NCBI GenBank assembly: GCA_947165725.1
Contig: CAMVBL010000004.1
Location: forward strand, 1 to 39,854
Direction: 5' to 3'
Source of the DNA: an uncultured Caryophanales bacterium
Lineage (GTDB): Bacteria > Bacillota_I > Bacilli_A > RFN20 > CAG-826
DNA length: 39,854 nt
The notes beneath the pieces were generated by a model that saw nothing but the letters and a program-made list of their open reading frames with translations, ran no database searches and was not told the origin of the DNA. The position numbers and the translations under genes are program-made. Numbering within the stretch: position 1 is the stretch's first letter; each line of letters opens with the position of its first letter. This document shows positions 3,265 through 28,853 of the stretch, in pieces.

Positions 3265-3628
3265 AATGTGCCTTTCGAAATATAAGAAAAGGGAAATAAA
3301 TGCTAAATGCATTTCCATCCCCTACATCCTATTTCCTACTATTATTATATCAATTTATTGATATAAAAACAAGACTCTATCGGTACTTTTTAACCAGAGA
3401 TTAATCAACGCGCATATAACTACACTCAAATTCATCCCCTACTTATAGAAGATAGGGGTCTTCTTTGAGAATTCGATAAAATGATAATACACTGAAGTTT
3501 TTGTATCATCGTCAGACACCCACCGTTCAGTCTTCCTTTTCTTTATAACCGTTACTTGGTTGGCGGTGGTACTTTTTATCAAAATCTTTATTTATTTCTA
3601 ATAAATCTCATATTATAAATAATGGTAT
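3265..3628. other. Intergenic region: element end plus structured leader
   Basis: Beyond the hairpin at 3435-3457 there are further inverted repeats before the double-XRE gene: ATGATA/TATCAT (3481-3486 with 3504-3509), CCACCG/CGGTGG (3520-3525 with 3564-3569) and a nested AACC/GGTT (3547-3550 with 3558-3561). The CCACCG/CGGTGG stem is followed by a T-rich stretch (CTTTTT). I recognise no known riboswitch. This may be a terminator or a leader structure of the gene at 3629. Confidence 0.4.
3435..3457. repeat. Hairpin repeat, putative left end of tnpB element
   Basis: A GC-rich hairpin near-identical to the one at 1986-2007, differing mainly at one stem position. It is oriented the same way and lies about 170 nt upstream of the tnpB start. 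Confidence 0.6.
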
Positions 3629-12582: not shown

Positions 12583-13140
12583 TGAGCTACCAGTTTATGA
12601 TTAATAGCGCAAATATGACCAAGCCCTAATACTAAAGGGTTTTTATTTAATGCATAACCTCTAGTTTTAGTGCCATATAAGAATGTGCAAAGTATTGAAC
12701 AAAAAAATAGATCCTTTGAATTAGCGTTATAGGCGTGTATATACTATTCACACAAATTCAAATCACTTTGGCTCTGATTCGGGTTTAAAAACACTCATAA
12801 TCCAAATATGTTTTTTCTTACGCTTTTTTCTAGAAAAAGCTTAAAATGCTCTATCTCATACATTAATAATACTTATCTACTAAATAAAATTAATTATTTA
12901 TTTGGTATTTTATATATTCCAAAGAATATATATTATCACACTCCTTTAATTCGAATAAAACTCGCTAAAAGTTAAAACAAATAAAAATTAAACAATAAAA
13001 GTTCATCCTTATTATTTTTTATATTTACATCATTATTTTAACCAAACACACACATATATTTTTAAGGAGGTATTTATTAATAATAAATAAAACTAATAAT
13101 TTCAACAAAACTACATTAAATAACGAAAGGAGATTTTTTC
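12583..13140. other. 558-nt AT-rich intergenic region with regulated promoter and long leader
   Basis: Contains, in order: a weak terminator (AAGCCCT/AGGGTTT, 12621-12642); promoter copy 1 of the shared regulatory module (12684-12745); a hairpin GCTTTTT-N5-AAAAAGC (12822-12840); a 9-bp hairpin TATATATTC-CAAA-GAATATATA (12911-12932); and an anti-Shine-Dalgarno CTCCTTT (12941-12947). An isolated AAGGAGG (13061-13067) lacks a following ATG, GTG or TTG. The operon's own AAAGGAG is at 13127-13133. From the predicted start site the leader is about 390 nt. No gene is visible in it. Confidence 0.6.
12684..12745 (+). promoter_or_regulatory. Shared regulatory module, copy 1 (protease operon)
   Basis: TGTGCA (12684-12689), 6 nt, TGAACA (12696-12701), exactly 14 nt, TTGAATTA (12716-12723), 16 nt, TATACT (12740-12745). 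Same layout as copies at 18103, 20338 and 24584. Drives the operon beginning at 13141. Confidence 0.75.
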
Positions 13141-14118
13141 ATGGAACAATTGAACATACAATCAATTCATACCGATGTACAACAATTCATGGCCGTATTC
13201 AAAAAGAAGGGCAAGTTATATTACAGATGGCATTACTCAGGCATTCGCAAGATGGCTAAAGAGGTCTCACCAGCGTATCGTGATTTCGTTAATAAAGTAT
13301 TATCTAACGGCAAACTTAAAATAAAACCTACCACAAGAGGATATTGCCATCCAAACTTCGCTTGTTCGAGTAACTTATCCAAAAGAATGGAAACGACTAT
13401 TTATATTGATTATTGCGATGGTAGAACATTTCTTCATGAACTTGGTCATTCAATTGACTTCTTATTCGGACTACCACGTGCTTTATCGTGTAACGTGATT
13501 GTTCAAGATGGAAAGACATTACGTGAAATCTTTGATGAAGAATTCAAAGAACATCATCAAGAGTTAAGAGAATTCATCATGAATGAGTATCGCTGTAACA
13601 TCAATTCGAATATTCATGCTGGCGCATACGATATCTTCATTAATAATATGCCTAAGTATCTTGAATTGTGTAAATGTGAAGACAAGAAGCAAAGAAAGAA
13701 ACTCCAAGACGAATTATATAAATGTGGCTTTGTTGAGGTTTATTACCAAATCGCTACAAAGAATTGCTTCAGCATTCTTAATAAGAAATATATAGCAATC
13801 TTAGATGCCTTATCTGCTATCTATCCTATTGATGGATTATTCTTGCTTGGTCACGCAAAAGAATATTACGAACTCGATGAAAAAAATCCAGTTTATGAAT
13901 TCTTTGCTAATGTCTTCGCGGATAAATTACTAGGTAATCAATATAGATATGACCAACTAATCAAACTAATGCCTAAATCATTTAACGCATTCGAAAGATT
14001 ATTTGTCTTAATCTATGACAAAATCCAAAACAATAAGAGATTTACTAATCTTTCTCTTATTCCATACGAAGAAAAAGACGAAGAAGAAGTAGAACAAAAG
14101 GAGGAATACCAAGCTTGA
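13141..14118 (+). CDS. Zincin metallopeptidase-like protein
   Basis: A 325-residue protein with HELGH (His99, Glu100, His103). A likely third ligand lies in YEFFANVFA (Glu about 253), the gluzincin arrangement. There is no signal peptide or membrane helix, so it should act in the cytoplasm. The C-terminus ends in an acidic Glu-rich tail. AAAGGAG precedes the ATG. The TTG start of the next gene overlaps its TGA, so translation is coupled. It is the first gene of the operon behind promoter copy 1. It might process a specific protein, as ImmA/IrrE-type zincins do, but the target is unknown. Confidence 0.75.
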   Translation: MEQLNIQSIHTDVQQFMAVFKKKGKLYYRWHYSGIRKMAKEVSPAYRDFVNKVLSNGKLKIKPTTRGYCHPNFACSSNLSKRMETTIYIDYCDGRTFLHELGHSIDFLFGLPRALSCNVIVQDGKTLREIFDEEFKEHHQELREFIMNEYRCNINSNIHAGAYDIFINNMPKYLELCKCEDKKQRKKLQDELYKCGFVEVYYQIATKNCFSILNKKYIAILDALSAIYPIDGLFLLGHAKEYYELDEKNPVYEFFANVFADKLLGNQYRYDQLIKLMPKSFNAFERLFVLIYDKIQNNKRFTNLSLIPYEEKDEEEVEQKEEYQA

Positions 14119-14588
14119 ACTACGAAGCATACATTAATCAAAAGGTAACGAACTATAAAGGTCAAAAAGGCTATATTGTCTCTTTTGACCAAGAAAGAGT
14201 AACTGTGCAATTAGATAATGAACAAGTTATCTATAAGCCAGATGTTGCTTTTAAAAACAAAGCACTTGTGTTTGATGATGAACGATTAAACCAATTAATG
14301 AGTAGTGGTCTTGAACATCAAGAGCAAGAGGCGGAAGCATATAAAAAGAAGATTGAAAAAATCAATAAAGAAGCGATAAAAATCAACGCCATGTCATCTA
14401 AGCAATTCATTGAACTTAGAAAAAAAGACAATATCTTAAAGAGCTTATTTGGCGATGATTTTGATTATCCACCTTTCATCGCTCTTAAAAAGAAATTCCC
14501 TCATTCTAAACAAAGGGGCGCATATGAAAACTTATGCGCTAAATGGAATCGCCAATCAGCTATTAATGACCGCTTCACATTATTATAA
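14115..14588 (+). CDS. Hypothetical protein coupled to zincin and AAA protease genes
   Basis: A 157-residue protein starting with TTG, which overlaps the preceding TGA (TTGA). GGAGG lies about 11 nt upstream, inside the zincin gene. An N-terminal beta-rich segment (about 1-50: KGQKGYIVSFDQERVTVQLDN) has an SH3/KOW-like look. The rest is Lys-rich and helical. No catalytic motif. Tight coupling on both sides suggests it is an adaptor or subunit for its protease neighbours. Confidence 0.65.
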   Translation: MNYEAYINQKVTNYKGQKGYIVSFDQERVTVQLDNEQVIYKPDVAFKNKALVFDDERLNQLMSSGLEHQEQEAEAYKKKIEKINKEAIKINAMSSKQFIELRKKDNILKSLFGDDFDYPPFIALKKKFPHSKQRGAYENLCAKWNRQSAINDRFTLL

Positions 14589-14600
14589 AAAGGAGAATAT

Positions 14601-16040
14601 ATGAGACTAGAAGACGAATTAGAACAAAAGAAAAAAGAAATGTTAGAAGAACAAGAACTTATGGAAATGGAAGAAATGTTCGATAGTGTGGTCGAAGAAG
14701 AAATCGGACACGTTAACTATGATGAACTTCCAAAAGAAACTAAAGAAAATAATCAAGAGGGTATTAAATATCCTTATGAATTCATACAGCCACAAAAACT
14801 AGATGATTCCGAAGAACCACTTGGCAAAGTAGTGGGTCACGAGAATCAAAAGAAAGAACTACTCAATGTTATTGATTGGTTCAAACGTTCTAAAGAATTA
14901 AAAGCAAAAGGTTTATCAACTCCCCACGGGATTTTGATGTTCGGCCCTATGGGCTGTGGAAAATCAATGCTTATTAAAGAAATCATTAGATGTTGTGAAG
15001 CTCCTGTATTTGTCTTTAAAGGCGAAAAAGATAACGCTATTGTGGAAGGTATTATTGATACATTCAAAAAAGCCAAAGAAACAGGTCATGCTATTGTTGT
15101 CTTTGATGAACTCGACTTGCTCATCAACAAAGAAAGAAGAGTTATTAGAGCCTTGCAAGAAAGTATGGATGGTGTTGAATCAGATGATAATATCTTGGTT
15201 TTAGCCGCCACTAATGACCTTGATGATATTCCTGGACCGTTATTAAGACATGGCAGATTCGATAAATTAATCCACATTCCAGTTCCCAAGGGCAAAGACG
15301 CTTTAGTGCTATTCAAGAAATACATGAAGGAATTCGGCGTCAAACTTCCTGATGACTTCGATGATGAAGAAATGGAATTATCGTTAAATAACATCAGTTG
15401 TGCGGGTATCAAAGCTATTGTTAACGATATATTATTACGAAACGGCTTCGAAAATATCACAACTGATATGATTGATAAGTCAATCTTCAACATCACCGAT
15501 AGAATCAAAACAACACCAGAAGAAGACAACATGGAAGTTAGTGTTCATGAATGTTCACATGTGTTGGTTGCAAAGCAATTCCCACAATTCTTCGATATTA
15601 ACAGAGTTAACATCAGTGGTGCCTCTGGCTGTTTCCACGCTCGTGAAGTTGAACCAGGCTTCTGGCCATATGAAAAAGTCTTAGCAGATATCAAAATCTG
15701 CATGGCGGGTATTATTGGCCAAAAAGTTATCTATGGTAGAGCTTCTAGAGGTGTGGAGTCAGACTTACAGTCTGCAAGAAGAAGTGCATATAACCTTTTT
15801 AATATCGCTGGCTATAGCAATTGTTGGGAAACACTTCCAACTGTAGCGCCTGGCTCTAGAACTGAAACACAAACCAAGAGAAGAAGAATGGAAAGAAAAA
15901 TCGAAAGACTTCTCAAAAAGTGTGAAAAAGAAACATATAAAATTGTTAAAAAGAACAAAGACAAGATTATTGCCTTAGCGAAATTGCTCTTCGAAAAGAA
16001 GCATCTTAAATCATCAGAAATCCTAGCCTCAATTGGCTAG
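14601..16040 (+). CDS. Soluble FtsH-like AAA+/M41 zinc protease
   Basis: A 479-residue protein. An acidic coiled-coil-like N-terminus (1-60) replaces the two membrane helices of FtsH. The AAA+ module has Walker A GPMGCGKS (115-122), Walker B VVFDELD (166-172), sensor TND (204-206) and arginine-finger region RHGRF (216-220). The M41 peptidase carries HECSH (316-320, for HExxH) and a third ligand Asp at about 388 (SDLQSA). All key residues are present, so it should be an active ATP-dependent protease, but free in the cytoplasm. FtsH is normally over 600 residues. AAAGGAG lies 8 nt upstream of the ATG. A hairpin covers its stop codon. Confidence 0.85.
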   Translation: MRLEDELEQKKKEMLEEQELMEMEEMFDSVVEEEIGHVNYDELPKETKENNQEGIKYPYEFIQPQKLDDSEEPLGKVVGHENQKKELLNVIDWFKRSKELKAKGLSTPHGILMFGPMGCGKSMLIKEIIRCCEAPVFVFKGEKDNAIVEGIIDTFKKAKETGHAIVVFDELDLLINKERRVIRALQESMDGVESDDNILVLAATNDLDDIPGPLLRHGRFDKLIHIPVPKGKDALVLFKKYMKEFGVKLPDDFDDEEMELSLNNISCAGIKAIVNDILLRNGFENITTDMIDKSIFNITDRIKTTPEEDNMEVSVHECSHVLVAKQFPQFFDINRVNISGASGCFHAREVEPGFWPYEKVLADIKICMAGIIGQKVIYGRASRGVESDLQSARRSAYNLFNIAGYSNCWETLPTVAPGSRTETQTKRRRMERKIERLLKKCEKETYKIVKKNKDKIIALAKLLFEKKHLKSSEILASIG

Positions 16041-16047
16041 GGTTTCT
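16018..16047 (+). terminator. Hairpin over the stop codon (attenuator-like)
   Basis: CCTAGCC (16022-16028), loop TCAATT, GGCTAGG (16035-16041). It can be extended by flanking A-T and G-T pairs to about 11 bp and is followed by a short pyrimidine tract. It lies between the FtsH-like gene and the next gene, so it may reduce downstream transcription or protect the upstream mRNA. Confidence 0.45.
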
Positions 16048-16066
16048 TAAGAGGTGAATAAAATAA

Positions 16067-16738
16067 ATGAATCTAAAAAAACTATTAGAAGCATTTAAAA
16101 ATGAAACACATATTTCAATATCCGAGATCCAAAGAAGAATGGGTGTTGGATATCTAACCGCTGGAAAATATCTAGTGGAATTAATCGATAAGAAATATAT
16201 CTATAAAAACGAACAAGGTAAATATGTATTCGATAAGAAAACAGTTGATACGGGCATCAATATTATCTTCTTAGATGTCGATGGTGTGCTTAACTGTAGT
16301 ACCACTAAAGATAAGTGTGGTGGATATACTGGTATCGAAGATCAAAAAGTAAGATTACTTAAACAACTAGTGGACAAAACAAATTCCAAGATCGTTTTGG
16401 TGTCTACTTGGAAATTCTATTGGTATAAAGAGAAATATCTAAAAGATAAACAAGATGAACTTGCCAATTATCTTGATATGAAACTTGTTAAACAGGGATT
16501 AGCCATCTATGACAAAACAGATGACTATGAAATTCTTGAAAGAGGTGGAGGTATTCTCCAATACTTAAATATCCTTAAATTAAAAGGAATTAAAGTTAAT
16601 AAATATGTAATCCTAGATGATGAATTATTTGATTATCTTCCCACTAAACTAACAAAACACTTAGTGCAAACTAGCTATAGACAAGGCGGCTTAGAAGAAA
16701 AACATGTTAAGAAAGCATTAGAAAAGATGGCGGATTAA
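16067..16738 (+). CDS. Winged-helix plus HAD-superfamily phosphatase-like protein
   Basis: A 223-residue protein. Residues about 1-60 form a winged helix like the FtsK gamma domain (SISEIQRRMGVGYLTAGKYLVELIDKKYI). Residues about 64-220 are a HAD domain with motif I FLDVDGVLN (Asp70, Asp72), motif II VSTW (Ser113/Thr114) and motif IV ILDDE (Asp184, Asp185). The DVDGVLN plus STW pattern resembles the HAD_SAK group described in 'Swiss Army Knife' RNA-repair proteins. It is the last gene of the protease operon and converges on the WYL-type gene with a 4-nt overlap. Confidence 0.75.
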   Translation: MNLKKLLEAFKNETHISISEIQRRMGVGYLTAGKYLVELIDKKYIYKNEQGKYVFDKKTVDTGINIIFLDVDGVLNCSTTKDKCGGYTGIEDQKVRLLKQLVDKTNSKIVLVSTWKFYWYKEKYLKDKQDELANYLDMKLVKQGLAIYDKTDDYEILERGGGILQYLNILKLKGIKVNKYVILDDELFDYLPTKLTKHLVQTSYRQGGLEEKHVKKALEKMAD

Positions 16739-16749
16739 TTTCCGCCATC
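16726..16749. terminator. Perfect palindrome over two convergent stop codons
   Basis: GATGGCGGA (16726-16734), loop TTAATT, TCCGCCATC (16741-16749). Both convergent genes end inside it. It is GC-rich in an AT-rich context and could be a bidirectional terminator or mRNA 3' end protector, although no T-run follows on either strand. Confidence 0.5.
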
Positions 16750-18036
16750 TGGATTGTTATTACCACTTGCTTGAGCTTTTCTCTGAGCTCGCTTTGCTAG
16801 CCACTCTTCCCTTCTTCTGCGTTTTTCTTCTATTTCTTCTTGAGTAGGAGGCTTGCGACCATATTTTTCTACTCTCTTTGTGAAGAGTGGTATTAAGTGA
16901 CTTAAAAGACGGTTGTTGAAGAAAGAAGGAGAAACGACAACTAGATGCTTATACCACCCATGTTCCCAAAACCATTTTTTAAATGATGAGAAATTGCACT
17001 TTACGGAGCCATGGGCATCAACATAAGTTGTTGTTATCTGTTCTCCGTTTTCATCCTCTTCGATTTCTTCTCTATTTATTAGCTCACATGTCATAGGCGT
17101 GTCGAAATATTTCTCATAATCATCCTTAAGCTTTTCTACGATTTTTTCGTCGATATCACCTTCAGTACCAACCACATATTTGAATTTTATTGTGTATTGA
17201 AGGCCAGTCTGACCCCTATAATATGAGTCAATCATGGTATCGATATCTTCGTATTTTGAACCAATCAAATCAAAACTTAACGGCGCTGAACTTTTATGAT
17301 TCACAGAGAATTTTTTTATGACTATGTTATCTATGTCAACTATAGCAGCGCCATTGATGTCTGGGAAATAAAGACAAACATCTTTTCCTTTAGCTCTAGC
17401 ATAACCAATTGCAGTAATATATTTCTTATTATTATCATTCTTATTTTCATCATCAGTTAATGCATTGATTTCTTCATACACTTTTGCATTAGAACAAGAG
17501 ACATATTCTACACGTTTTCTAGGCCTGAATAAGCATGGGTATTGATTTTCAATAAAATCATCAATCGAATAGTATTTCTCAACTGTTTCAAGATTTTTGT
17601 GTTTGTTTCTTTTGCCTCTTTTTAAAGAAGAAATAATTTTTTCCTTTAAAGTTTGATTACAAACAGCATTGAGAAATTTATTAATTAACTTTTCAGACAT
17701 AACTTCAGTTATATCTTCGTAGTTGTCTATAGCTTCTGCAGTCTTTTTTATTTCCTTCTCATTTAAGAGACTATATTCGATGTAATAACGTGGTTTCCCA
17801 TTTATTTTCTTAATAGTGAAAGGAAGAATGCCTGGGAATGTTTGATTTAAATTCGCTAAGAACTCTAAGATGCCATTAACTCTTCTTCTGTCTAATAACA
17901 CCATGTAGTTTTTCTTAGCGTAGTCCATTAAATCAGTTGTTTTAGAAGTATGCTTTTCGTCATAACATTCATCCAATAAGTACTTCAATGTGATGAATAA
18001 TTCTTGTCTTGTTGCATCCACTTGTTTTCCGGCCAT
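16735..18036 (-). CDS. WYL-type transcriptional regulator
   Basis: A 433-residue protein. The N-terminal winged helix (about 3-60) and following YYIEYSLLNEKEIKKTAEAI linker are typical of DeoR/WYL regulators. The middle region (about 200-260) matches the WYL beta-barrel in length and hydrophobic pattern, although the literal W-Y-L triplet is not obvious. The C-terminal part (FSSFKKWFWEHGWYKHLVVVSP) resembles the WCX extension. It ends with an Arg-rich tail. I start at 18036 because TGGAGGT lies 9 nt upstream; a longer ATG would contain that site. Its promoter overlaps operator copy 2, suggesting autoregulation. WYL proteins include PafBC and DriD (DNA damage) and BrxR/CapW (phage defence). 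Confidence 0.7.
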   Translation of the reverse strand: MAGKQVDATRQELFITLKYLLDECYDEKHTSKTTDLMDYAKKNYMVLLDRRRVNGILEFLANLNQTFPGILPFTIKKINGKPRYYIEYSLLNEKEIKKTAEAIDNYEDITEVMSEKLINKFLNAVCNQTLKEKIISSLKRGKRNKHKNLETVEKYYSIDDFIENQYPCLFRPRKRVEYVSCSNAKVYEEINALTDDENKNDNNKKYITAIGYARAKGKDVCLYFPDINGAAIVDIDNIVIKKFSVNHKSSAPLSFDLIGSKYEDIDTMIDSYYRGQTGLQYTIKFKYVVGTEGDIDEKIVEKLKDDYEKYFDTPMTCELINREEIEEDENGEQITTTYVDAHGSVKCNFSSFKKWFWEHGWYKHLVVVSPSFFNNRLLSHLIPLFTKRVEKYGRKPPTQEEIEEKRRRREEWLAKRAQRKAQASGNNNPDGGN

Positions 18037-18090
18037 AAAAAATACCTCCAATGATCAGTTGCAAAAGTGAGTAATGGCGTAATTTTCTAT

Positions 18091-18120
18091 ATTATAACAT
18101 TTTGTGCACAATTTTGCACA
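18091..18120 (-). promoter_or_regulatory. Promoter of the WYL-type gene overlapping operator copy 2
   Basis: On the minus strand: TGTGCA (plus-strand 18115-18120) at the -35 position, an 18-nt spacer, then TATAAT (plus-strand 18091-18096). The TGTGCA-N6-TGCACA inverted repeat covers the -35 and spacer, so binding would repress this promoter. Confidence 0.6.
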
Positions 18121-18164
18121 TTTATTATGATTACTTGAATTAGGCTTTTTTCTATGTCTATACT
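18103..18164 (+). promoter_or_regulatory. Shared regulatory module, copy 2 (retropepsin/ADP-ribosylglycohydrolase operon)
   Basis: TGTGCA (18103-18108), 6 nt, TGCACA (18115-18120), exactly 14 nt, TTGAATTA (18135-18142), 16 nt, TATACT (18159-18164). It drives the operon that starts at 18236. Confidence 0.8.
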
Positions 18165-18235
18165 ATTAGCACATCACTCATATCAACCCTCTTACATCAA
18201 TCTTAATTAACATCATTTTGTAAATAACTAGTTTA

Positions 18236-18394
18236 ATGAGGAGGTTTTTATTTACGCTTAAAAAACAAAATCCTGATTGTTTAAAAAACAATCAAAACAA
18301 CCAAATCATCTATGATTACGAAGATGAGTTAGAACTCATCGAAATCGAGGAAGAACTCGAAAGATTAGAACAAGAAAAGTTCTACATCGAATAA
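18236..18394 (+). CDS. Small acidic protein with unclear start codon
   Basis: A 52-codon frame from ATG 18236. The C-terminal 30 residues are highly charged (YEDELELIEIEEELERLEQEK) and would form a coiled coil. The ATG has no ribosome binding site in front. Instead GAGGAGG overlaps its first codons (18238-18244) and points to about 18254, where the codon is ACG. A 46-residue product started at ACG is therefore possible. The stop overlaps the next in-frame ATG, and AAAGGAG for the retropepsin gene follows. Confidence 0.5.
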   Translation: MRRFLFTLKKQNPDCLKNNQNNQIIYDYEDELELIEIEEELERLEQEKFYIE

Positions 18395-18414
18395 TGAAAG
18401 GAGAACATAACTTA

Positions 18415-19080
18415 ATGTACAATTACACATTATCTAACAACCATTACATCATTAACATAAAAGGTAATAATTACCTTCTTGATACTGGCTCTCCTGTATC
18501 ATTTTCTCTCAAACCAGGATTAAACAGCGTAAAAATTAACCAAAGAAGATACTCATTACCATATAACGTAATGAATCTAGATATAGAAGCCACTCGTGAA
18601 TTAGTGGGTATGGATGTTGATGGATTTATCGGCATGGATATTATCCGTCAAACATCATTAACCATATATAAAGATGGAAGAATTGAATTTAAAGCTCTTC
18701 CAGAACAAGGATACGAACTAGATATGCTCGCCGGGTCAATGGGACTTATAAAACTTAAAGTCCAAAGCAATGACTATGTATCCACTTATCTCGTTGATAC
18801 AGGCGCTAGATATGCCTATGGTGTTGAAGGTCTATTTAGAGGAAGCAAACCATTTGGTCATGTTCGTGACTACAATCCAAGATTGGGTCACTTCAAAAGT
18901 GATATCTATCATGTCGATGTTAATTTTGGTCCAATCAAAAAGACACTTGATATTGCTGATAGTGTTGCGGTTAGAAACGACTTAGCAATGACTATGTCCT
19001 TAATTATTGGTAATATTACCGATTTATTTGATGAGGTATGCATTATCGATATGCAAAATAGGAGAATAATACTTAGATAG
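18415..19080 (+). CDS. Two-DTG retropepsin-like aspartic protease
   Basis: A 221-residue protein with two retropepsin-like halves, each with an Asp-Thr-Gly active-site motif: LLDTGSPVSF (Asp about 23) and LVDTGARYAY (Asp about 128). The first half ends in a GFIGMDII segment, matching the second hydrophobic-Gly element of retropepsins. Carrying both aspartates in one chain would make it a monomeric pepsin-like enzyme. There is no signal peptide, so it is cytoplasmic. I start at 18415 because AAAGGAG lies 10 nt upstream; the ATG at 18394 precedes that site. An ADP-ribosylglycohydrolase gene follows 9 nt after the stop. Confidence 0.75.
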   Translation: MYNYTLSNNHYIINIKGNNYLLDTGSPVSFSLKPGLNSVKINQRRYSLPYNVMNLDIEATRELVGMDVDGFIGMDIIRQTSLTIYKDGRIEFKALPEQGYELDMLAGSMGLIKLKVQSNDYVSTYLVDTGARYAYGVEGLFRGSKPFGHVRDYNPRLGHFKSDIYHVDVNFGPIKKTLDIADSVAVRNDLAMTMSLIIGNITDLFDEVCIIDMQNRRIILR

Positions 19081-19089
19081 GAGAATACT

Positions 19090-19947
19090 ATGTTAGGTGC
19101 AATTATTGGTGATATGGTGGGATCTATCTATGAATTCCACCCAATTAAAACAAAAGAATTTAACATATTTAATAAAAGAAGCAGAATGACAGATGATTCA
19201 TTATTAACAATCGCTGTTGCTAGAACATTATTAAAACATTATCCAATTCAATATAATGAAGAATCATTAGAGTCTCTTAAAAAAGACTTAGTATATGAGT
19301 TTGCTAGAACTTGGCGTTGCTATCCTCAAGCAGGTTTTGGTGGCAAGTTCTTCGAGTGGGCTAGACACGCTTCAATATTTGGTGAAGCAGAACCATACAA
19401 CTCATACGGCAATGGTAGTGCGATGCGTATCTCTTCTGTTGGCTGGATTGCCAATAATGAAGGCGAAGTAAAACAACTATCAAAAGCAGTTACAGAAATT
19501 ACTCATAATCATCCAGAAGGGTTAAAAGGCGCTGAAGCAGTAGCTATGTGTATCTATTTAGCGAGAAATGGCTATTCTAAGGAACAAATCAAAAAGAGAA
19601 TGATAGATGAATACTATCCAGAAATTGAAGACTTCAATTACCAGGAATTGGTGAAAACAAGTGAATTCTCTGAAATCTGTCAAAAGAGTGTCCCCCAAGC
19701 TATCTACTGTTTCTTAGTATCAGATAGTTTGGAAGACGCTATTAGAAACGCAGTAGCGTTAGGCGCTGATAGTGACACTCAAGCGTGCATTGCTGGGTCA
19801 ATCGCTGAAGCCTATTACCAAAGAGATAAGTTATCAGAATTCGAAGATAAGTATCTCTACTTCATGGTAGAACCATATGTGGAAGACCTCGTTAAAGAAT
19901 TCCACAAAACAATTGGTAGCAAGAAGTTTGATAAAGAAGGTAAGTAA
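19090..19947 (+). CDS. ADP-ribosylglycohydrolase (DraG/ARH family), copy 1
   Basis: A 285-residue DraG-fold protein with GAIIGDMVGS at the N-terminus and TDDS (about 35-38; more usually TDDT). It also has GNGSAMRI (about 106-113), THNHPEG and the C-terminal metal site GADSDTQACIAG. These are the two-Mg site residues of the family, which removes ADP-ribose from proteins, nucleic acids or ADP-ribose derivatives. AGGAGA precedes the ATG. It lies between the retropepsin-like gene and a BspA-type gene in the operon behind promoter copy 2. A second, related copy lies at 34327. Confidence 0.92.
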   Translation: MLGAIIGDMVGSIYEFHPIKTKEFNIFNKRSRMTDDSLLTIAVARTLLKHYPIQYNEESLESLKKDLVYEFARTWRCYPQAGFGGKFFEWARHASIFGEAEPYNSYGNGSAMRISSVGWIANNEGEVKQLSKAVTEITHNHPEGLKGAEAVAMCIYLARNGYSKEQIKKRMIDEYYPEIEDFNYQELVKTSEFSEICQKSVPQAIYCFLVSDSLEDAIRNAVALGADSDTQACIAGSIAEAYYQRDKLSEFEDKYLYFMVEPYVEDLVKEFHKTIGSKKFDKEGK

Positions 19948-19949
19948 TA

Positions 19950-20324
19950 ATGAGCAAATTAATTGATAAAGAACCATTCATTAAAAGAAATCAATACGAA
20001 GACAATAAAGAACTAGGAACCATTGGTCTTGATAACGCCTTTTTCGTAGGAAGCGGTGCATTTAAAGATTGTACATCGTTAACAGATGTCTACTTCGGCT
20101 ATGACATTTCAAGAATTAGCCATGGTGCATTTGAAAACTGTAAATCACTAAAGGATGTTTGGTTTGCAATTATTGATGAAGATAAAATCATCGAAATTGC
20201 AGATGATGCATTCAGAAATTGCAATCAAAATATCACATTCCATATCTTCGTGACCGCGAAAAACAATAAATATCTAAATAAGTATGCACATAAGCACGGA
20301 TTCCGTGTTGAAGGTATGATTTAG
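19950..20324 (+). CDS. Short BspA-type leucine-rich-repeat protein
   Basis: A 124-residue protein with about three LRR_5/BspA repeats (GAFKDCTSLTDVYF, GAFENCKSLKDVWF, DAFRNCNQNITF). It starts 2 nt after the ADP-ribosylglycohydrolase stop and probably reads in one operon with it. There is no signal peptide, so unlike surface BspA proteins it is cytoplasmic and may be a protein-binding partner. Its first six residues (MSKLID) recur at the gene that begins at 39828. Confidence 0.8.
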   Translation: MSKLIDKEPFIKRNQYEDNKELGTIGLDNAFFVGSGAFKDCTSLTDVYFGYDISRISHGAFENCKSLKDVWFAIIDEDKIIEIADDAFRNCNQNITFHIFVTAKNNKYLNKYAHKHGFRVEGMI

Positions 20325-20337
20325 ACCTAAATAAAAA

Positions 20338-20399
20338 TGTTCATAGGCATGCACAAAAATTGCGGTTAGTTTACACGTCATTTTTTCATGTCATAAATA
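20338..20399 (+). promoter_or_regulatory. Shared regulatory module, copy 3
   Basis: TGTTCA (20338-20343), 6 nt, TGCACA (20350-20355), exactly 14 nt, TTTACA (20370-20375), 18 nt, TAAATA (20394-20399). The operator spacing matches the other copies; the -35/-10 sequences differ from TTGAATTA/TATACT. It drives the genes from about 20426. Confidence 0.65.
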
Positions 20400-20425
20400 T
20401 ATGTGTCGAAAGGAGAAAACTCACT

Positions 20426-20608
20426 ATCGAAAGCACTAAAAACAGATGGGCAAACAAAGAAGAAGCTTATATGTTTGCCAAATCAGCCGAAGAGCTCGGC
20501 AATCTTGGCTTGCGCTATGTTTCTGCTTGTGACTATCTTGGCTGGGATGTCTCTATTAGAAGAGAAATCTTGGCTAAGCACAAGCGCAGAGCCCACACCC
20601 ACGGATAA
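20426..20608 (+). CDS. Small protein with apparent non-AUG start
   Basis: The frame encodes about 60 residues (ESTKNRWANKEEAYMFAKSAEE...) ending in a basic tail. AAGGAG (20410-20415) is followed at the right distance (10 nt) by ATC, not ATG, GTG or TTG. Upstream starts in this frame (TTG 20360) lie inside promoter copy 3. An internal ATG exists at 20471 but lacks a binding site. The gene either uses a rare AUC start, starts at 20471, or has lost its start codon. Function unknown. Confidence 0.45.
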   Translation: MESTKNRWANKEEAYMFAKSAEELGNLGLRYVSACDYLGWDVSIRREILAKHKRRAHTHG

Positions 20609-20665
20609 AGTGGAGCCTTATTAATTCTATTAAGGAGATGTTCAGAAGGGAGGCTGTAAGTAATT

Positions 20666-21085
20666 ATGCACCACACAAGAAAAACACACAATTCTCACAA
20701 CGAAACCCAAAGAAGATTAAGAAGAATTTTAGCAAACAGCCCTGTTTCTCGTTTTGCTCCAACCCCACATTATACATACGTCGAATACCTATACAATGAT
20801 CTCTTCTGCTATGTTCACCCATATTGGGTCGATGTCCACTCCTCAATGCATGCTGTGTACAAAGATGCCATCAATAAAAGTAATAGATTTTTTGATTCTT
20901 TTGAAGAAGCTGAATTTGCTAGAACTCACCAATTCTTAGTCAAAAAATCAAAATCAAACGGTAAAAACTCTACATACAAATTTTATAAACGTTTAGTTCA
21001 CAAATGGTGGAGAAGAAGAGGGTTTGATGAACTCACTTACTCTCTTAAAGGATCATGTTCCTCTTATATCGACATTTTCTGGTAA
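20666..21085 (+). CDS. Hypothetical basic protein
   Basis: A 139-residue basic protein rich in His, Arg, Tyr and Trp (RRLRRIL near the N-terminus, HKWWRRRG near 112-119). The composition suggests nucleic-acid binding, but no family is recognised. AGGGAGG lies 13 nt before the ATG, slightly far. It is in the operon behind promoter copy 3. Confidence 0.6.
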   Translation: MHHTRKTHNSHNETQRRLRRILANSPVSRFAPTPHYTYVEYLYNDLFCYVHPYWVDVHSSMHAVYKDAINKSNRFFDSFEEAEFARTHQFLVKKSKSNGKNSTYKFYKRLVHKWWRRRGFDELTYSLKGSCSSYIDIFW

Positions 21086-21132
21086 TTAAGAGTTAGTTTT
21101 ACTCGCTATGCGAAGAAAGGAATAATTGAAAG

Positions 21133-21636
21133 ATGAAAACAACCGCAACAGAACTTATGAAAAAGCTTAAGTTCATTGAACAAGAAATCTCCAACATCCA
21201 TCAAAATGATGAAAAAGACTCATATGTCCCAATTATTGAAAATACAAATAAAGATGGGCATAAGACCTTAGCGCCTGCTTATGAGGTTATCTACGACTTC
21301 ATGGGTAACAGAGAAAGAATTAGAGAACTCTATGAAGAGGAATCACAAATCAAAAAAGTCCTCAATGAGTTCAATCAAAGAACTCTTATCGATGGATATA
21401 ACCTCACCATCAGTGAAGGCCTTGTGAGATTAGGTCAACTTAAAAGCGAAGTCACTGTCCTAACAAGCATCACTAGAAGAGGCAAATATATCCAAGACTC
21501 TTATAGAGAAGGTATAAGAAAAGCTACTTATGATGACAAAGTAGTGAAAGACGAGTTAAGAAAGGCTCAACACGAATTAAGCGCCTTACAAGTCGCTATT
21601 GATAGAACTAACTTAACAGTAGAAATCGAGTACTAA
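21133..21636 (+). CDS. DIP1984/septicolysin-like helical protein
   Basis: A 167-residue, mostly helical protein. It has the pattern of DIP1984-family proteins: an N-terminal helix, a middle loop, a long paired-helix region with a conserved Asn-Gly-like turn, and a C-terminal helix ending IDRTNLTVEIEY. Family assignment is tentative. AAAGGA lies about 13 nt upstream. It follows the basic protein gene in the same direction. Function unknown. Confidence 0.6.
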   Translation: MKTTATELMKKLKFIEQEISNIHQNDEKDSYVPIIENTNKDGHKTLAPAYEVIYDFMGNRERIRELYEEESQIKKVLNEFNQRTLIDGYNLTISEGLVRLGQLKSEVTVLTSITRRGKYIQDSYREGIRKATYDDKVVKDELRKAQHELSALQVAIDRTNLTVEIEY

Positions 21637-21700
21637 AATAAATCCGATTAATTAATATAAATCAACGCCTAAACGCGGCTTAATGCGGACATGCTCAGGG

Positions 21701-21901
21701 ATCTTTTTGATAAAAGATTACGTAGATTATGTGCATTCTGTTATATAGGTGATACCTTATCCGTTTGCATACGGATCGGTCATTGAGTTATGACGTTCCT
21801 AGCGGAATAATTATTGTGAGTTATATTCATCTCCTTGATTTATATAAATATTAATAAAAACCAATTTGATATAGATGGTTCGGTTCGTCTATATCCCTTT
21901 T
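21701..21901 (+). ncRNA. Candidate structured RNA: chain of perfect hairpins
   Basis: Successive perfect hairpins: ATCTTTT-TGAT-AAAAGAT (21701-21718), ATAGGT-GAT-ACCTTAT with one bulge (21745-21760), ATCCG-N8-CGGAT (21759-21776), GTCAT-TGAGTT-ATGAC (21779-21794) and GATATAGA-N12-TCTATATC followed by TTTT (21868-21901). A TGTGCA half-site occurs at 21730-21735. No coding frame is visible, and I recognise no known riboswitch. It may be a small RNA or the leader of the gene at 21909, which has no Shine-Dalgarno sequence; the last hairpin ends just before its ATG. Confidence 0.4.
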
Positions 21902-21908
21902 AGCAATT

Positions 21909-22331
21909 ATGAAAGTTAGTATTTATTCAAAACCAGAATTATTTGAAATTATCAAAGATAAAGGATTACCACCTAACACCGCTGTTGTGGCTTTTACGGA
22001 TGAAGGGTGTGGTGAGTTCTTAGAATTCCCTATTACCGCTGATGTATTAAAGATTGAATTCGATGATATTAGGGCACGTGATATCCCAAAGGAACGAATA
22101 GTGGAACTTCTACCAGAAGCCCACGCTATCGCTGTCTTTGTGGACCAAAAGATTAAAGAACACAAAGACATCATCTGCCAATGTGATTACGGCATCTCAA
22201 GAAGCGCAGGCTTAGCTGCCGCTATATTAGAAAGATACGCTCATAAAGGTATAGAAGTGTTTTCCAACTACAAATATAACCCCAATCAAATTGTTTATAA
22301 CAAAGTCTTTGAGGAATTAAAGAAACTATGA
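21909..22331 (+). CDS. Cys-based protein phosphatase-like protein (DSP/PTP fold)
   Basis: A 140-residue protein with a P-loop CDYGISRSAG (Cys92 to Arg98, C-x5-R), preceded by a beta strand (KDIICQ). This is the signature of dual-specificity/tyrosine phosphatases and of related phage and bacterial phosphatases. The size is small for the family but the core is present. The next gene's ATG overlaps its TGA, so the two are coupled. No ribosome binding site is seen; a hairpin with a T-run lies directly upstream. The substrate is unknown; phosphoprotein, nucleotide or RNA 5' ends are all possible. Confidence 0.75.
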   Translation: MKVSIYSKPELFEIIKDKGLPPNTAVVAFTDEGCGEFLEFPITADVLKIEFDDIRARDIPKERIVELLPEAHAIAVFVDQKIKEHKDIICQCDYGISRSAGLAAAILERYAHKGIEVFSNYKYNPNQIVYNKVFEELKKL

Positions 22332-22969
22332 TTTATGAAATATCGTTTATAGAACCAAAAGCCCATTGGAATTGGGTATCCGTGTCCTCTATTAACAAGG
22401 ACATCTTTTTAGATTTTATTGACTACTTATATAACTTAGATAGAGAGATTGAAGTGTTACCTTATATTCCTGGTGGCTTAGTCGCGGCAATGATTCCTAA
22501 ACCATATATGGACAAGACCTATCTTGTAAAAGGGATAGTCGAAAAGATTAAAGCCAAAGAACAGAAGGAAGAACTATTTGAAGTGTTTTGTCACATAAAA
22601 AGTGCTGATAATCAAGCAAAGATATTCTTTATTGAAGATGTATATGAAATGCTTTTATCATTCGGCTTAACTCAAGAACAAGCTGCGAAAGTTTCGATTG
22701 AGCAACCATTCGGAGAAAGGATTAAAGATCACATACCGTCTAACGTAAACAGCCATCAATTAGAGTTATTTATTAAACAATTTGATGACAGCTGGTACTT
22801 TCCTTATGGTTCCAGATGGATATTTATCTATATGTTTAGAGGCGAATTCATTAGATATATGAAAAACAAAGGATATGATACATCCGTTGATGGTGGATGG
22901 ATATTAAATGACAAAGAAAGAGAAATGAAATTAGGGCTAATCGATGAAAACGGAGATATGATAAAATAA
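22328..22969 (+). CDS. Hypothetical protein coupled to phosphatase gene
   Basis: A 213-residue protein whose start overlaps the phosphatase stop (ATGA). It is a mix of helices and strands. A short motif (VYEMLLSFGLTQEQAAKVS) is reminiscent of DNA-polymerase III or HhH-like helices, but this is not enough to assign a family. No catalytic residues stand out. The nuclease gene follows 19 nt downstream with GGGGA upstream of its ATG. Confidence 0.6.
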   Translation: MIYEISFIEPKAHWNWVSVSSINKDIFLDFIDYLYNLDREIEVLPYIPGGLVAAMIPKPYMDKTYLVKGIVEKIKAKEQKEELFEVFCHIKSADNQAKIFFIEDVYEMLLSFGLTQEQAAKVSIEQPFGERIKDHIPSNVNSHQLELFIKQFDDSWYFPYGSRWIFIYMFRGEFIRYMKNKGYDTSVDGGWILNDKEREMKLGLIDENGDMIK

Positions 22970-22988
22970 TATAAAGGGGACACTATAT

Positions 22989-24542
22989 ATGAAACAATAT
23001 GAAAGAGAAGAACAAATCATTAAGCTTTTTGATGAAAAAAAGAAGCCACTTTCCAACGCTGAAATAGAGAAAGAACTAAAGTTTACAGGTGCCTCAACTT
23101 TTACAAAAAAACTAGTGTATTACCGCTATCTTGAAAGAGATGAGGAAAACAAAACGTTTAAAAGGACTAGAAAAAAGTACAACTTGACTCAGAGAGCGCA
23201 AGAGACCGACAGTGAAGAAGAGAAGAATTATGAAATGGTTCTTAATAAAGTTTTTACCGGCTCTTTTCTGTATCACAATTTGGGACATGAATTGATTAAT
23301 TTTATGAAGGATCAAGATGGTAATCGCTATATCTACCTTAATCCGTGGGGGAATAGAGGAATAGAAGCCGAAAACGAAACAAGATATGTCTTTCACATTA
23401 TTGAATCATCATTAAAAGACGAAAAAGGAATGTATGAAATAGTTGCTGTATCTGAAGTTGATACTAATAATGATTCAGAAGATTATTATTCAAGAACTGG
23501 TGATAGAACCATTGAAAAGGAGCATTCTCCAATCTATCATAATCATTCTTTTTACGACATTTTCTATTGTGGGCCAAAAAGTGATCTTGCACACATCTAC
23601 ACTTATAGAGCAAGCAGATTGTTGGTGCCAGCTGAAAACATAAGAATAGTTGTCAAAATTAAAAGCGATGAGGCCAGTCTTGATCCATCAAATCCTAATC
23701 ACCTTAAAATCTCATTGATGTGTAATCCACAACACGACATAGCGTATGCCGATAATTCTGGAAAGAAGTATTTTGATTCACAGCGAAATGCAAACACTGA
23801 TGTTAGTGTTTTATCTGATTTAATTAATCTTGAAAATGGTTATATGCGTGAAGCCACAGATGATGATATAGACATAGAGAACCTTGATGATGAACAATGC
23901 TTTGCTGTCATCAGTGATAGAACTAATCTAGAAGACTCAACATCTAACCAAATTGCTTATTTTTTAGGACGAGACAAATCGCTTCTCTATGGTTTCATTC
24001 ATGATTTTTTAGGAGTGAGTAATGTTTCTCGCGAAGAAACTTTTGAAGTGTTCAGGGAAGAAAACAAAATAGATTTACTTTTTTTAAGTGATGAACACGC
24101 AATTGTTGTTGAAAACAAAATAGATTCATCCATCAACGGAAAAAGCAAAAGAAAAAATAGGAGAGGCAAATACAAGTCACAATTAAGTGTCTATTATGAT
24201 TTGCTTCACAAGAAGAACGATAAGAGATTTAACGAAATCGATGATGAAAATAAAAAATTCTTTGTTTTGGCTCCTGAATACAACCCTATCAACGAACAGG
24301 AACTCAGCACTGTTTACGAAAAAGGCGATCAGTATGCTTATAAAACATACAACCAATTGCTAGCTTTTATTCAGAGAAATAATTATCGACCTATGAATAT
24401 GGAACCAAGCCAACTCGGAGAATTTATGTATAAAGAGTTTGAAAAGACAATAGAATATATTAGTTGGTCAAAGGCTAAGCAACGTGAAAGAACAGCTTAT
24501 ATTCGTTTAAAACAAAAGATAACAGAATTGGATAACCAATGA
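22989..24542 (+). CDS. Winged-helix PD-(D/E)XK nuclease
   Basis: A 517-residue protein. A winged helix (about 1-55) leads to an unassigned middle domain. A C-terminal PD-(D/E)XK nuclease domain begins near 330 (HDFLGV), with EENKIDLLF (Asp about 361) and IVVENKID (Glu-Asn-Lys, about 375-377), then a YKSQLSVYYDLL helix. The layout matches PD-(D/E)XK superfamily 4 proteins common near defence genes. It is preceded by the coupled phosphatase pair and followed by a strong terminator at 24561-24584. Confidence 0.8.
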   Translation: MKQYEREEQIIKLFDEKKKPLSNAEIEKELKFTGASTFTKKLVYYRYLERDEENKTFKRTRKKYNLTQRAQETDSEEEKNYEMVLNKVFTGSFLYHNLGHELINFMKDQDGNRYIYLNPWGNRGIEAENETRYVFHIIESSLKDEKGMYEIVAVSEVDTNNDSEDYYSRTGDRTIEKEHSPIYHNHSFYDIFYCGPKSDLAHIYTYRASRLLVPAENIRIVVKIKSDEASLDPSNPNHLKISLMCNPQHDIAYADNSGKKYFDSQRNANTDVSVLSDLINLENGYMREATDDDIDIENLDDEQCFAVISDRTNLEDSTSNQIAYFLGRDKSLLYGFIHDFLGVSNVSREETFEVFREENKIDLLFLSDEHAIVVENKIDSSINGKSKRKNRRGKYKSQLSVYYDLLHKKNDKRFNEIDDENKKFFVLAPEYNPINEQELSTVYEKGDQYAYKTYNQLLAFIQRNNYRPMNMEPSQLGEFMYKEFEKTIEYISWSKAKQRERTAYIRLKQKITELDNQ

Positions 24543-24560
24543 TTGCTATTTTTATAAACG

Positions 24561-24584
24561 CCATCTATATTTAGGTGGATTTTT
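24561..24584 (+). terminator. Rho-independent terminator directly before promoter copy 4
   Basis: Stem CCATCTA (24561-24567) with TAGGTGG (24572-24578), one G-T pair, followed by ATTTTT. Its end meets the first operator base of copy 4 (24584), so the two operons are tightly packed. Confidence 0.7.
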
Positions 24585-24647
24585 GTGCATTCTTTTGCAC
24601 ATATTTTTCAATGTTTTGAATTACAAAAATAATTGTTTTAGTATACT
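24584..24647 (+). promoter_or_regulatory. Shared regulatory module, copy 4 (DUF2779 operon)
   Basis: TGTGCA (24584-24589), 6 nt, TGCACA (24596-24601), exactly 14 nt, TTGAATTA (24616-24623), 18 nt, TATACT (24642-24647). Same layout as copies 1-3. Confidence 0.8.
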
Positions 24648-24667: not shown

Positions 24668-24797
24668 CCTCCATATCAATCACCAATTCATTCTTCTTTC
24701 ACTTTCTTATCCTCCTTTATTATTAATACTCGAATTGGTGATTGATATTTCTTTACCTAATAAATCTTTAATTAAACAAATATAAAAACAAAAGGAG
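24668..24797 (+). promoter_or_regulatory. 5' leader with 17-bp hairpin and anti-Shine-Dalgarno
   Basis: ATATCAATCACCAATTC (24673-24689) pairs perfectly with GAATTGGTGATTGATAT (24732-24748). The 42-nt loop carries CCTCCTTT (24711-24718), complementary to the gene's own ribosome binding site AAAGGAG (24791-24797). A further ACCTCC lies at 24668-24672. A loop-to-binding-site interaction could switch translation of the downstream gene. Confidence 0.6.
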
Positions 24798-24808
24798 AAT
24801 TATTAACA

Positions 24809-25225
24809 ATGGAAATCAAATTAACAGTTACAGAAAAAGACAAAGTCTTATACAACTTCTTAAAGCAGTTTAAGAATGAAGAATACATGATGAAAGGCCT
24901 CAACGATGCAGTGGAAACATATGGTTTTTGCTGCGGTGATGATAGCGAACAACTTGGCTATACAACTCCAGAAAACTTAAAAGAAAGATTATGGAAATCT
25001 ATGAAGAAAGAAGATCTCCTTGATCTAAGAAATAAATACTTAGAAGAAGTTCTGTTATACGCTCAAGACTTCCATCCAAACGAAATTGATTGTGGCATTA
25101 TGAGAGGACCAGACACTGAATACTGGTTCGTCAATGATGGAGCTAGAATTGGCTATATCAGTCTCTATGCTAACTATATCAAGGCAATTGATGAAGTGCT
25201 AAATAATTGCGCTATAATAAAATAA
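24809..25225 (+). CDS. Hypothetical protein, first gene of DUF2779 operon
   Basis: A 138-residue soluble protein with no recognised domain. It has two helical halves around a Cys-Cys pair (FCCGDD, about 39-44). AAAGGAG precedes the ATG and the whole leader is structured. It is directly controlled by promoter copy 4. Its position as first gene in an operon of nuclease-like proteins suggests an accessory or regulatory role; function unknown. Confidence 0.6.
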   Translation: MEIKLTVTEKDKVLYNFLKQFKNEEYMMKGLNDAVETYGFCCGDDSEQLGYTTPENLKERLWKSMKKEDLLDLRNKYLEEVLLYAQDFHPNEIDCGIMRGPDTEYWFVNDGARIGYISLYANYIKAIDEVLNNCAIIK

Positions 25226-25254
25226 ATTAGAATAATTTGCTTAAAGGAGACACT

Positions 25255-25761
25255 ATGGAAAAAGAATTACAAAGAATAGTGGATTTGTTTGTGAGGAAAA
25301 GCTTTGCCGATCCTACGGTTTACCGTTTTGAAAAAGAAAACAAATCAGCTTTTGATGACATCAAATCTTTATTAAAAGAAAAGGGATTTAACTTGGTTAA
25401 TGTTAACTCAGCGTTAACCGTTGATTCCGAAGATTATAATATGCTAATTTCAAAAGCAGGATTTACAGGGCCTACAGGAAAAGAAACGATTAATGACTGT
25501 TTCGTTAGCGATGAGCAAAAAAAGAGTTTGGTTACCATTGCTAAATTGAGAGAAATAGAAGAACGAGTCAACAATAAAACCGTGCTTGTGGTTGAATATA
25601 ATGATCAAGTGTTGAACAATCACACATTCTATGAAACAGTGCGTTCTTGGCTAAAAGATGGTGTGCCGTCGCTTAGGTCGATAAAAGGCATTGTCTATTT
25701 AGAAACTACTGAAAAAATAAGAGATTTCTGTTTATATGGAATCGTGTATCGAAAAAAATAA
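25255..25761 (+). CDS. Hypothetical protein upstream of DUF2779 nuclease
   Basis: A 168-residue protein with no recognised domain. I start at the ATG at 25255, because AAAGGAG lies about 7 nt upstream; an earlier TTG (25237) would include that site. The gene precedes the DUF2779 gene by 40 nt. The tail (IKGIVYLETTEKIRDFCLYGIVYRKK) is beta-rich. It is probably a partner of the nuclease; no further claim can be supported. Confidence 0.65.
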   Translation: MEKELQRIVDLFVRKSFADPTVYRFEKENKSAFDDIKSLLKEKGFNLVNVNSALTVDSEDYNMLISKAGFTGPTGKETINDCFVSDEQKKSLVTIAKLREIEERVNNKTVLVVEYNDQVLNNHTFYETVRSWLKDGVPSLRSIKGIVYLETTEKIRDFCLYGIVYRKK

Positions 25762-25801
25762 TCTGACATTTTATCAAAAAAGGCAAATAAAAAGAGAAGT
25801 T

Positions 25802-27895: not shown

Positions 27896-27914
27896 TAAGG
27901 AAGAGAATAAAAAT

Positions 27915-28853
27915 ATGAAGAAAGAACAATTTAAAGAATGGCTTAAGGTGAATACAACCAATAAAGATAGAACGATAAGCAGCATAATTTCGAGGATTAA
28001 TCGTATTGAAAACGCTTATGGTGATTTGGATACAATTAAAAAAAGCAAATTTATCAAAATTCTTTCTGAATTTGAATTTAGCAAAAACGAATTTGATGCC
28101 GGGAAAATGCCAATGCATAAAATCGTTATGCATGGTAACTATTATGATGACACCAGTAGCCTTAGAAAAGATTTGAAGCTTTATTATGATTTCCTTTTTT
28201 ATAACAACGATAGTTATAGACTATTCTTGGCTCATTTTGGCATTAGAGAAAAAGAATTCTTTGATTATGGACTAAAAAGCCTAATCTTCGTAGATCCTAA
28301 CGATGCTTATAAACAAATGAAACAACTAATCAATGCTTTGTTAAACGGGGGGCAAACGTTGTTTATTCGCTCCTACGGTAAGAACGGTGCTGGCGACCAT
28401 GTTTTTATAAATTTATATAAGGATCTTTTTCCAAAAAGCGACATTCAAATAGATAAATCTAACAACACCAGACCGAAGCAATTAATCCAACGATATAAAG
28501 GAATTAGAATAGGCACAAACACCGTAGATGGTGACACGTATAACTATATTTTATCTCACATATTTGCTAATACTAAAAACCCGCTATTTTTTGAAGGAGC
28601 ATTCAATTATTGCTTATGCCCGAAAATATATGATCCGTTCACAGGCAAAGAATGCAGCCTTGGCTGGAACGAGAACTTTTCTAAACAGCTACTTAGCAAA
28701 GTAAAAAAAGATTATCAGAAAACTATAAAATTAATAGAAGAATTCATTTCCGATAATGACATAATTAACAGAATCGATTTCTACTGTGCAAAGAATAATT
28801 TGTCCAAGCAAGAGATTCAAGATATTAAAAAGAATTGGTCATTTTCTGCTTAG
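27915..28853 (+). CDS. Hypothetical protein with restriction-like N-terminal domain
   Basis: A 312-residue protein. The N-terminal about 100 residues (FKEWLKVNTTNKDRTISSIISRINRIENAYGDLD) match a SAM-like helical module found at the N-terminus of several restriction or phage-type endonucleases. The C-terminal half has no clear motif. I start at 27915 because AAGGAAGAG lies 9-10 nt upstream; an ATG at 27879 precedes it and overlaps the DUF2779 gene. It is the last gene of the operon. A terminator-like hairpin is at 28880-28917. Confidence 0.65.
   Translation: MKKEQFKEWLKVNTTNKDRTISSIISRINRIENAYGDLDTIKKSKFIKILSEFEFSKNEFDAGKMPMHKIVMHGNYYDDTSSLRKDLKLYYDFLFYNNDSYRLFLAHFGIREKEFFDYGLKSLIFVDPNDAYKQMKQLINALLNGGQTLFIRSYGKNGAGDHVFINLYKDLFPKSDIQIDKSNNTRPKQLIQRYKGIRIGTNTVDGDTYNYILSHIFANTKNPLFFEGAFNYCLCPKIYDPFTGKECSLGWNENFSKQLLSKVKKDYQKTIKLIEEFISDNDIINRIDFYCAKNNLSKQEIQDIKKNWSFSA

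What the first reader, a model, noticed from the sequence alone, without database searches (positions are those of the whole stretch)
12684..24647. Four promoters share one strict operator-promoter module: a local regulon
At 12684, 18103, 20338 and 24584 the same layout recurs: TGTGCA-N6-TGCACA (or TGAACA/TGTTCA variants), exactly 14 nt to the -35 (TTGAATTA in three), then 16-18 nt to the -10 (TATACT in three). Measured to the predicted start, each operator is centred about 60 bp upstream, where class I activators bind. The controlled operons encode proteases, an ADP-ribosylglycohydrolase and a Cas4/DUF2779 nuclease. The spacing and sequence are seen directly. Joint regulation is an inference, with a WYL-type regulator as the likely protein.
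Basis: partly seen in the sequence, partly recalled or inferred. Interest (0 to 1): 0.85.

Follow-up and report, generated by a model that had tools for sequence, protein, structure and literature searches.

The report
Shared operator-promoter module, four-operon local regulon
Four neighbouring operons in an unidentified bacterium carry the same DNA switch in front of their promoters, and the switch is probably worked by a regulator encoded among them, sitting at an unusual distance for that kind of protein.

Summary
Four intergenic palindromes TGTGCA-N6-TGCACA (at most one mismatch) lie at 12684, 18103, 20338 and 24584; about 0.01-0.04 are expected. Three are followed after exactly 14 nt by TTGAATTA, then TATACT. 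The fourth has TTTACA there and no clear -10. Hexamer spacers are 18, 18 and 20 bp; the operator centre is 26.0 bp from the -35 centre in all three, about -60 from the predicted start. Best explanation: a local regulon activated from a class I-type position by the WYL-like protein at 16738-18036(-). Its model matches DriD and PafBC best, its DNA-binding end is its most conserved part, and the 18103 operator also covers -36 to -19 of its own promoter, which predicts autorepression. Homologues of the regulator share contig lengths with AAA-M41 protease homologues (7 of 25) and DUF2779 homologues (2 of 25). Binding, activation and signal are inferred. The WYL activators in the papers I saw bind at the -35 or -26 region, so a -60 site would be a new geometry. 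No genome is held for the window, so genome-wide spread and conservation in relatives stay untested.

The parts
12684..12701 (+). operator 1, TGTGCA-N6-TGAACA
12716..12745 (+). core promoter 1: TTGAAT(TA), 18 bp hexamer spacer, TATACT
13141..16738 (+). predicted operon 1: 325-aa protein with HELGH motif (by eye), 157-aa protein, AAA-M41 soluble FtsH-like protease (14601-16040), HTH+HAD_SAK_2 protein (16067-16738)
16735..18036 (-). WYL-like regulator, 433 aa (winged HTH, helical linker, WYL/WCX-like part); proposed to bind all four operators
18091..18099 (-). extended -10 (TGTTATAAT) of the regulator's own predicted promoter; operator 2 spans -36 to -19 of it
18103..18120 (+). operator 2, TGTGCA-N6-TGCACA, shared by the divergent pair
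18135..18164 (+). core promoter 2: TTGAAT(TA), 18 bp spacer, TATACT
18236..20324 (+). predicted operon 2: 52-aa frame (18236), protein with two DTG(S/A) motifs (by eye, retropepsin-like?), ADP-ribosylglycohydrolase (19090-19947), leucine-rich-repeat protein (19950-20324)
20338..20355 (+). operator 3, TGTTCA-N6-TGCACA; TTTACA at N14, no clear -10
20666..21636 (+). genes downstream of operator 3 (139 and 167 aa, no Pfam hit at E 0.001)
24584..24601 (+). operator 4, TGTGCA-N6-TGCACA
24616..24647 (+). core promoter 4: TTGAAT(TA), 20 bp spacer, TATACT
24809..28853 (+). predicted operon 4: 138-aa and 174-aa proteins, DUF2779 protein (25736-27895), 324-aa protein

Best explanation
A local regulon. 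A dimer of the WYL-like protein (16738-18036, minus strand) binds TGTGCA-N6-TGCACA centred about 60 bp upstream of three or four operons. From this fixed place, 26 bp from the -35 centre, it recruits RNA polymerase to weak cores (TTGAAT, 18-20 bp spacers) in the manner of a class I activator. At 18103 the same bound dimer covers the -35 region of its own gene on the other strand, so it would limit its own synthesis while switching on the divergent operon. By analogy with DriD and PafBC the signal may be single-stranded DNA or another nucleic acid. Shown by sequence and computation: sites, spacing, overlap with the regulator's predicted promoter, fold resemblance, contig-length linkage. Inferred: binding, activation, autorepression, ligand.
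Confidence: 0.55

Rival explanations
1. The module is real, but a different regulator (another HTH protein of the window, or a global regulator encoded elsewhere) binds it; the WYL-like gene is one more target.
For: Other DNA-binding-type proteins lie in the window: HTH at 3629, 7868 and 11183(-), HTH-like matches below cut-off in 16067 and a weak winged-helix match in 22989. The WYL activators in the papers seen do not sit at -60. A global regulator cannot be excluded because the genome is not held.
Against: All four sites cluster around the WYL-like gene and one lies in its promoter; its homologues share contig lengths with two target families. One scan of 84,980 species genomes with an operator-TTGA-TATAMT pattern gave 6 hits, none looking related; this weighs only against a regulator common in sequenced species.
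Confidence: 0.3
2. The WYL-like protein represses all four operons, BrxR-like, and a ligand releases it.
For: BrxR and CapW are among the structures matched, and BrxR is described as a repressor binding inverted repeats; CapW as a repressor is recalled.
Against: At three promoters the operator ends 14 nt upstream of the -35, where it should not block RNA polymerase, and the cores are weak with 18-20 bp spacers. Only at its own promoter does the operator cover the -35.
Confidence: 0.12
3. The palindromes are short intrinsic terminators or chance inverted repeats.
For: The scan lists 18103 and 24584 as terminator-like, 6-pair stems with T-rich tails.
Against: Sites 1 and 3 are followed by A-runs on that strand; the letters, the N6 spacing and the N14 distance to TTGAATTA are conserved; 7-pair terminator-like hairpins lie just upstream of sites 1 and 4, at 12621 and 24561.
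Confidence: 0.03

Closest known systems
DriD of Caulobacter crescentus (WYL activator, ssDNA-sensing)
   Same: Best fold match; wHTH-linker-WYL-WCX homodimeric activator; pseudo-palindromic site; one site in a promoter region shared by its own gene and a divergent operon; several targets including nucleases.
   Different: DriD sites overlap the -35 element and driD is not self-regulated; here the operator lies upstream of the -35 and covers the -35 region of the regulator's own predicted promoter. Site sequence differs (ATACGAC-N7-GTCGTAT, against TGTGCA-N6-TGCACA).
PafBC and SiwR (mycobacterial WYL regulators)
   Different: They act in the -24/-26 region; PafBC is a heterodimer.
BrxR (and CapW) regulators of phage-defence loci
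   Same: WYL-family fold; inverted-repeat operators near the own gene; two sites in one island.
   Different: BrxR represses, with 10-11 bp repeats and a 5 bp gap. PADLOC on ten proteins here gave only partial matches: IetA models to the AAA-M41 protein, PDC-S26 to 22989, a weak Csa3 to 16067.
CRP-type class I promoters
   Same: Operator centre near -61.5 upstream of a sigma-70-type core (figure recalled; the Type I range of -41 to -81 is).
   Different: The half-site is not the CRP one (recalled), and no CRP/FNR-type match appeared among the ORFs scanned with Pfam, which are most but not all ORFs of the window.

Membership tests
WYL-domain transcription regulators (class A) | N-terminal winged HTH | tested here: met
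   Model residues about 6-90 match winged-helix proteins, e.g. rmsd 2.2-2.6 over 68-75 residues
WYL-domain transcription regulators (class A) | WYL (Sm-like) and WCX domains by fold | tested here: inconclusive
WYL-domain transcription regulators (class A) | Recognised by the WYL/WCX sequence profiles | tested here: not met
   No Pfam WYL hit at E up to 5, none at 0.1 in the 3 homologues tried. Hence called WYL-like, not filed as a proven member
DriD-type activators | Binding site overlapping the -35 element | tested here: not met
   Operator ends 14 nt upstream of the -35 in 3 of 3 TTGAATTA promoters
DriD-type activators | ssDNA ligand in the WYL domain | not testable with these tools
   -
Class I activated promoter | Operator upstream of the -35, centre near -61.5 | tested here: met
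   -59.5, -59.5, -61.5 from predicted, not measured, starts
Class I activated promoter | Contact of the activator with the alpha C-terminal domain | not testable with these tools
   -
Regulon | Sites conserved in relatives and confined to related targets | not tested

The most novel reading that the evidence does not exclude
A new clade of WYL-fold activators that works from a class I position (about -60, rigidly 26 bp from the -35 centre) and uses one palindrome both to repress itself and to switch on a regulon joining an ATP-dependent protease and other possible proteases, ADP-ribose removal and a DUF2779 nuclease: a stress or defence programme, perhaps independent of LexA, in uncultured Bacilli.
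Probability: 0.3. Interest if true: 0.65.

Novelty: new variant of a known kind. Interest (0 to 1): 0.45.

Why it matters
WYL regulators are numerous (cites more than 15,000) and few have known sites. Here a regulator, its likely operator, its promoter geometry and its targets are all readable in one 12-kb stretch, which makes the pair directly testable. A -60 site would widen the known ways WYL proteins reach RNA polymerase. It would also give an entry to proteins of unknown role (soluble M41 protease, DUF2779 protein).

Tried and rejected
Genome-wide scan of the own genome: not possible. Operator-TTGA-TATAMT scan of 84,980 species genomes: 6 hits; 4 lie inside ORFs (three Pedobacter, one Chitinophagaceae) and 2 are intergenic (N15, before a glmS-like gene; N13, before a 92-aa ORF without a clear family); my hand estimate of chance is about 2 for even base composition, more for AT-rich genomes; no sign of a relative. 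Operator-N14-TTGA in 21 genomes of one phylum sample: 1 of 21 has a match, the reversed-pattern control 0; in the two Clostridia genomes of the scan: 1 match each, at the scan sites. Viral contigs: 0 for two strict modules, 9 for a looser one, all 9 inside ORFs, 8 without a -10-like hexamer and the ninth (L025) with one about 7 nt from the -35. Regulator and AAA-M41 alignments against viral contigs: no relative; AAA-M41 in phage and plasmid records: only about 23-26% identical FtsH-like proteins in the rows listed. Phylum samples around the two Clostridia genomes: regulator 1 weak hit in 299, AAA-M41 0 in 299 at E 1e-80, UU173 family 4 weak in 249 and none over the cut-off; these samples probably hold no Bacilli, so their emptiness says nothing about them. 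A family search of one genome (PF03747: 0 of 1, controls 5 of 14) was made to see whether control genomes could serve as centres; they could not. DUF2779 loci read afterwards: both in G031 have a Pfam-confirmed WYL gene nearby, those in G135 and G165 have none in 9 kb by eye and partial Pfam scan; G085 was not examined further. Rfam (gathering cut-off) and tRNA scans of the window: nothing. PDB sequence search with the regulator alignment and three other proteins: nothing meaningful. Terminator reading rejected. Literature: no held paper has both DUF2779 and WYL, or WYL with Cas4 and ADP-ribosylglycohydrolase; 'WYL domain' with 'transcriptional activator', 'operator' and 'class I' gave only the DriD preprint; half-site letters with 'operator' gave 62 papers, of which I saw the listing of 10. 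Taxon: only the label 'Bacilli bacterium' on a 70% AAA-M41 homologue and a 51% DUF2779 homologue and TnpB matches below 60% identity in scattered groups, so Bacilli is likely, not proven.
Full report
Observation. The four sites were read directly and recovered by pattern. TGTGCA-N6-TGCACA with at most one mismatch occurs four times in 39,854 bases, all outside ORFs of 60 aa or more, all between 12.6 and 24.7 kb; chance gives 0.01 (200 Markov sequences) to 0.04 (100 shuffles). Of thirteen half-site spacings scanned only N6 gives more than one site. Three sites are followed after exactly 14 nt by TTGAATTA, and then by TATACT; operator-N14-TTGAATTA occurs in none of 200 simulated sequences. The fourth, 20338, has TTTACA at the same distance but no better -10 than CATAAA, so it counts as a partial member. 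Four further sites with two mismatches have no TTGA at N14.

Geometry. In hexamer terms the cores are TTGAAT-18-TATACT, TTGAAT-18-TATACT and TTGAAT-20-TATACT. The operator centre is 26.0 bp from the -35 centre in all three, and -59.5, -59.5 and -61.5 from the predicted start. What is fixed is the distance to the -35; the -10 moves by 2 bp. The spacer sequences do not resemble each other by eye, so common descent of one recent promoter cassette is unlikely; this is inference. A consensus scan rates cores 1 and 2 only 9 of 12, misses core 4 as read here, and finds promoter-like matches in the region below the shuffle mean (64 against 84.8). The cores alone would therefore not have been picked out; the operator and the strict spacing carry the argument. 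The TTA after TTGAA, kept in 3 of 3, goes beyond a sigma-70 hexamer and is unexplained.

The divergent site. On the minus strand the 18103 operator is followed by TGTTATAAT, an extended -10, giving a predicted start at 18084 for the regulator gene (ATG at 18036, GGAGG before it). The operator then occupies -36 to -19 of that promoter. A dimer bound there would compete with RNA polymerase for the regulator's own promoter while standing at -59.5 of the divergent operon.

Linkage. Contigs could not be fetched, but the database prints the longest contig of each homologue cluster. Seven of 25 regulator rows share that length with one of the 120 listed (of 1513) AAA-M41 rows, and two of 25 with one of the 120 listed (of 133) DUF2779 rows; shifting the lengths by 1-100 gives means of 0.15 and 0.11, maxima 2 and 1. 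AAA-M41 and DUF2779 rows share two lengths, which is no more than the control maximum (mean 0.58, max 2). That equal lengths mean one contig is inference. The length 22,161 appears in all three families with the same source and contig count. If it is one contig, its DUF2779 protein is 95% identical to the window's while the regulator is 50% and the protease 79%, which suggests that the operons are exchanged separately. In G031 two paralogous WYL genes (46% identical, both over the Pfam cut-offs) lie near DUF2779 genes: one directly upstream on the same strand (L011), one divergent with a phosphoesterase-like gene between (L019). Two other DUF2779 loci, in G135 and G165, have none.

Targets. 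Operon 1: HELGH-motif protein, 157-aa protein, AAA-M41 protease that aligns only with the AAA and protease part of FtsH, HTH/HAD_SAK_2 protein. Operon 2: 52-aa frame, DTG-motif protein, ADP-ribosylglycohydrolase, leucine-rich repeats. Operon 3: proteins without Pfam hits. Operon 4: two small proteins, DUF2779, a 324-aa protein. PADLOC gave partial matches of IetA models to the AAA-M41 protein and of PDC-S26 to 22989. A stress or defence role is plausible and unproven.

Against the literature. I saw the abstract, passages, section 6 and part 1 of section 12 of PMC12340889, and passages only of PMC10693628 and PMC9122601. DriD binds over the -35 and leaves its own gene unregulated, PafBC sits near -24/-26 and SiwR at -26, and BrxR represses. 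A WYL-type protein activating from -60 would be a new geometry against these papers; one search for it found only the DriD preprint. Equally, the discrepancy is the main reason to doubt that the WYL-like protein is the binder.

Limits. The own genome is not held. The single scan of species genomes found only matches that look like chance. Starts are predicted, not measured. Verdict: a real, non-random shared module and a well-supported candidate regulon; regulator identity probable; mechanism inferred.

Noticed in passing
window 24673-24748: The predicted leader of operon 4 holds a perfect 17-bp hairpin with a 42-nt loop (fold z -4.7, 0 of 200 shuffles as stable). The loop contains CTCCTTT, which could pair with the AAAGGAG ribosome-binding site before 24809 (by eye).
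   Followed up: partly
window 12752-13140: Operon 1 has a predicted leader of about 390 nt with an AAGGAGG at 13064, some 70 nt before the ATG, and no listed ORF of 60 aa or more in it; its fold is not unusual (z -1.69).
   Followed up: partly
window 18171-18420: The operon 2 leader plus first frame folds more stably than shuffles (z -3.85, 0 of 200); a 52-aa frame starts at the ATG directly before AGGAGG (18236).
   Followed up: partly
window 25736-27895: The DUF2779 protein has a 95% identical homologue whose longest contig has the same length as that of a regulator homologue only 50% identical: possible mosaic exchange of operons.
   Followed up: partly
window 19090-19947, 31754-32716, 34327-35118: Two ADP-ribosylglycohydrolases and a macro-domain protein within about 16 kb, an ADP-ribose theme.
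   Followed up: no
window 2116-3318 (-): Full-length-looking TnpB (IS605 OrfB) with less than 60% identity to any matching record in the plasmid and phage collections.
   Followed up: partly
L011 7488-10414 and L019 3903-7582: WYL genes near DUF2779 genes twice in one genome drawn from the Clostridia-phylum sample, in different arrangements.
   Followed up: partly
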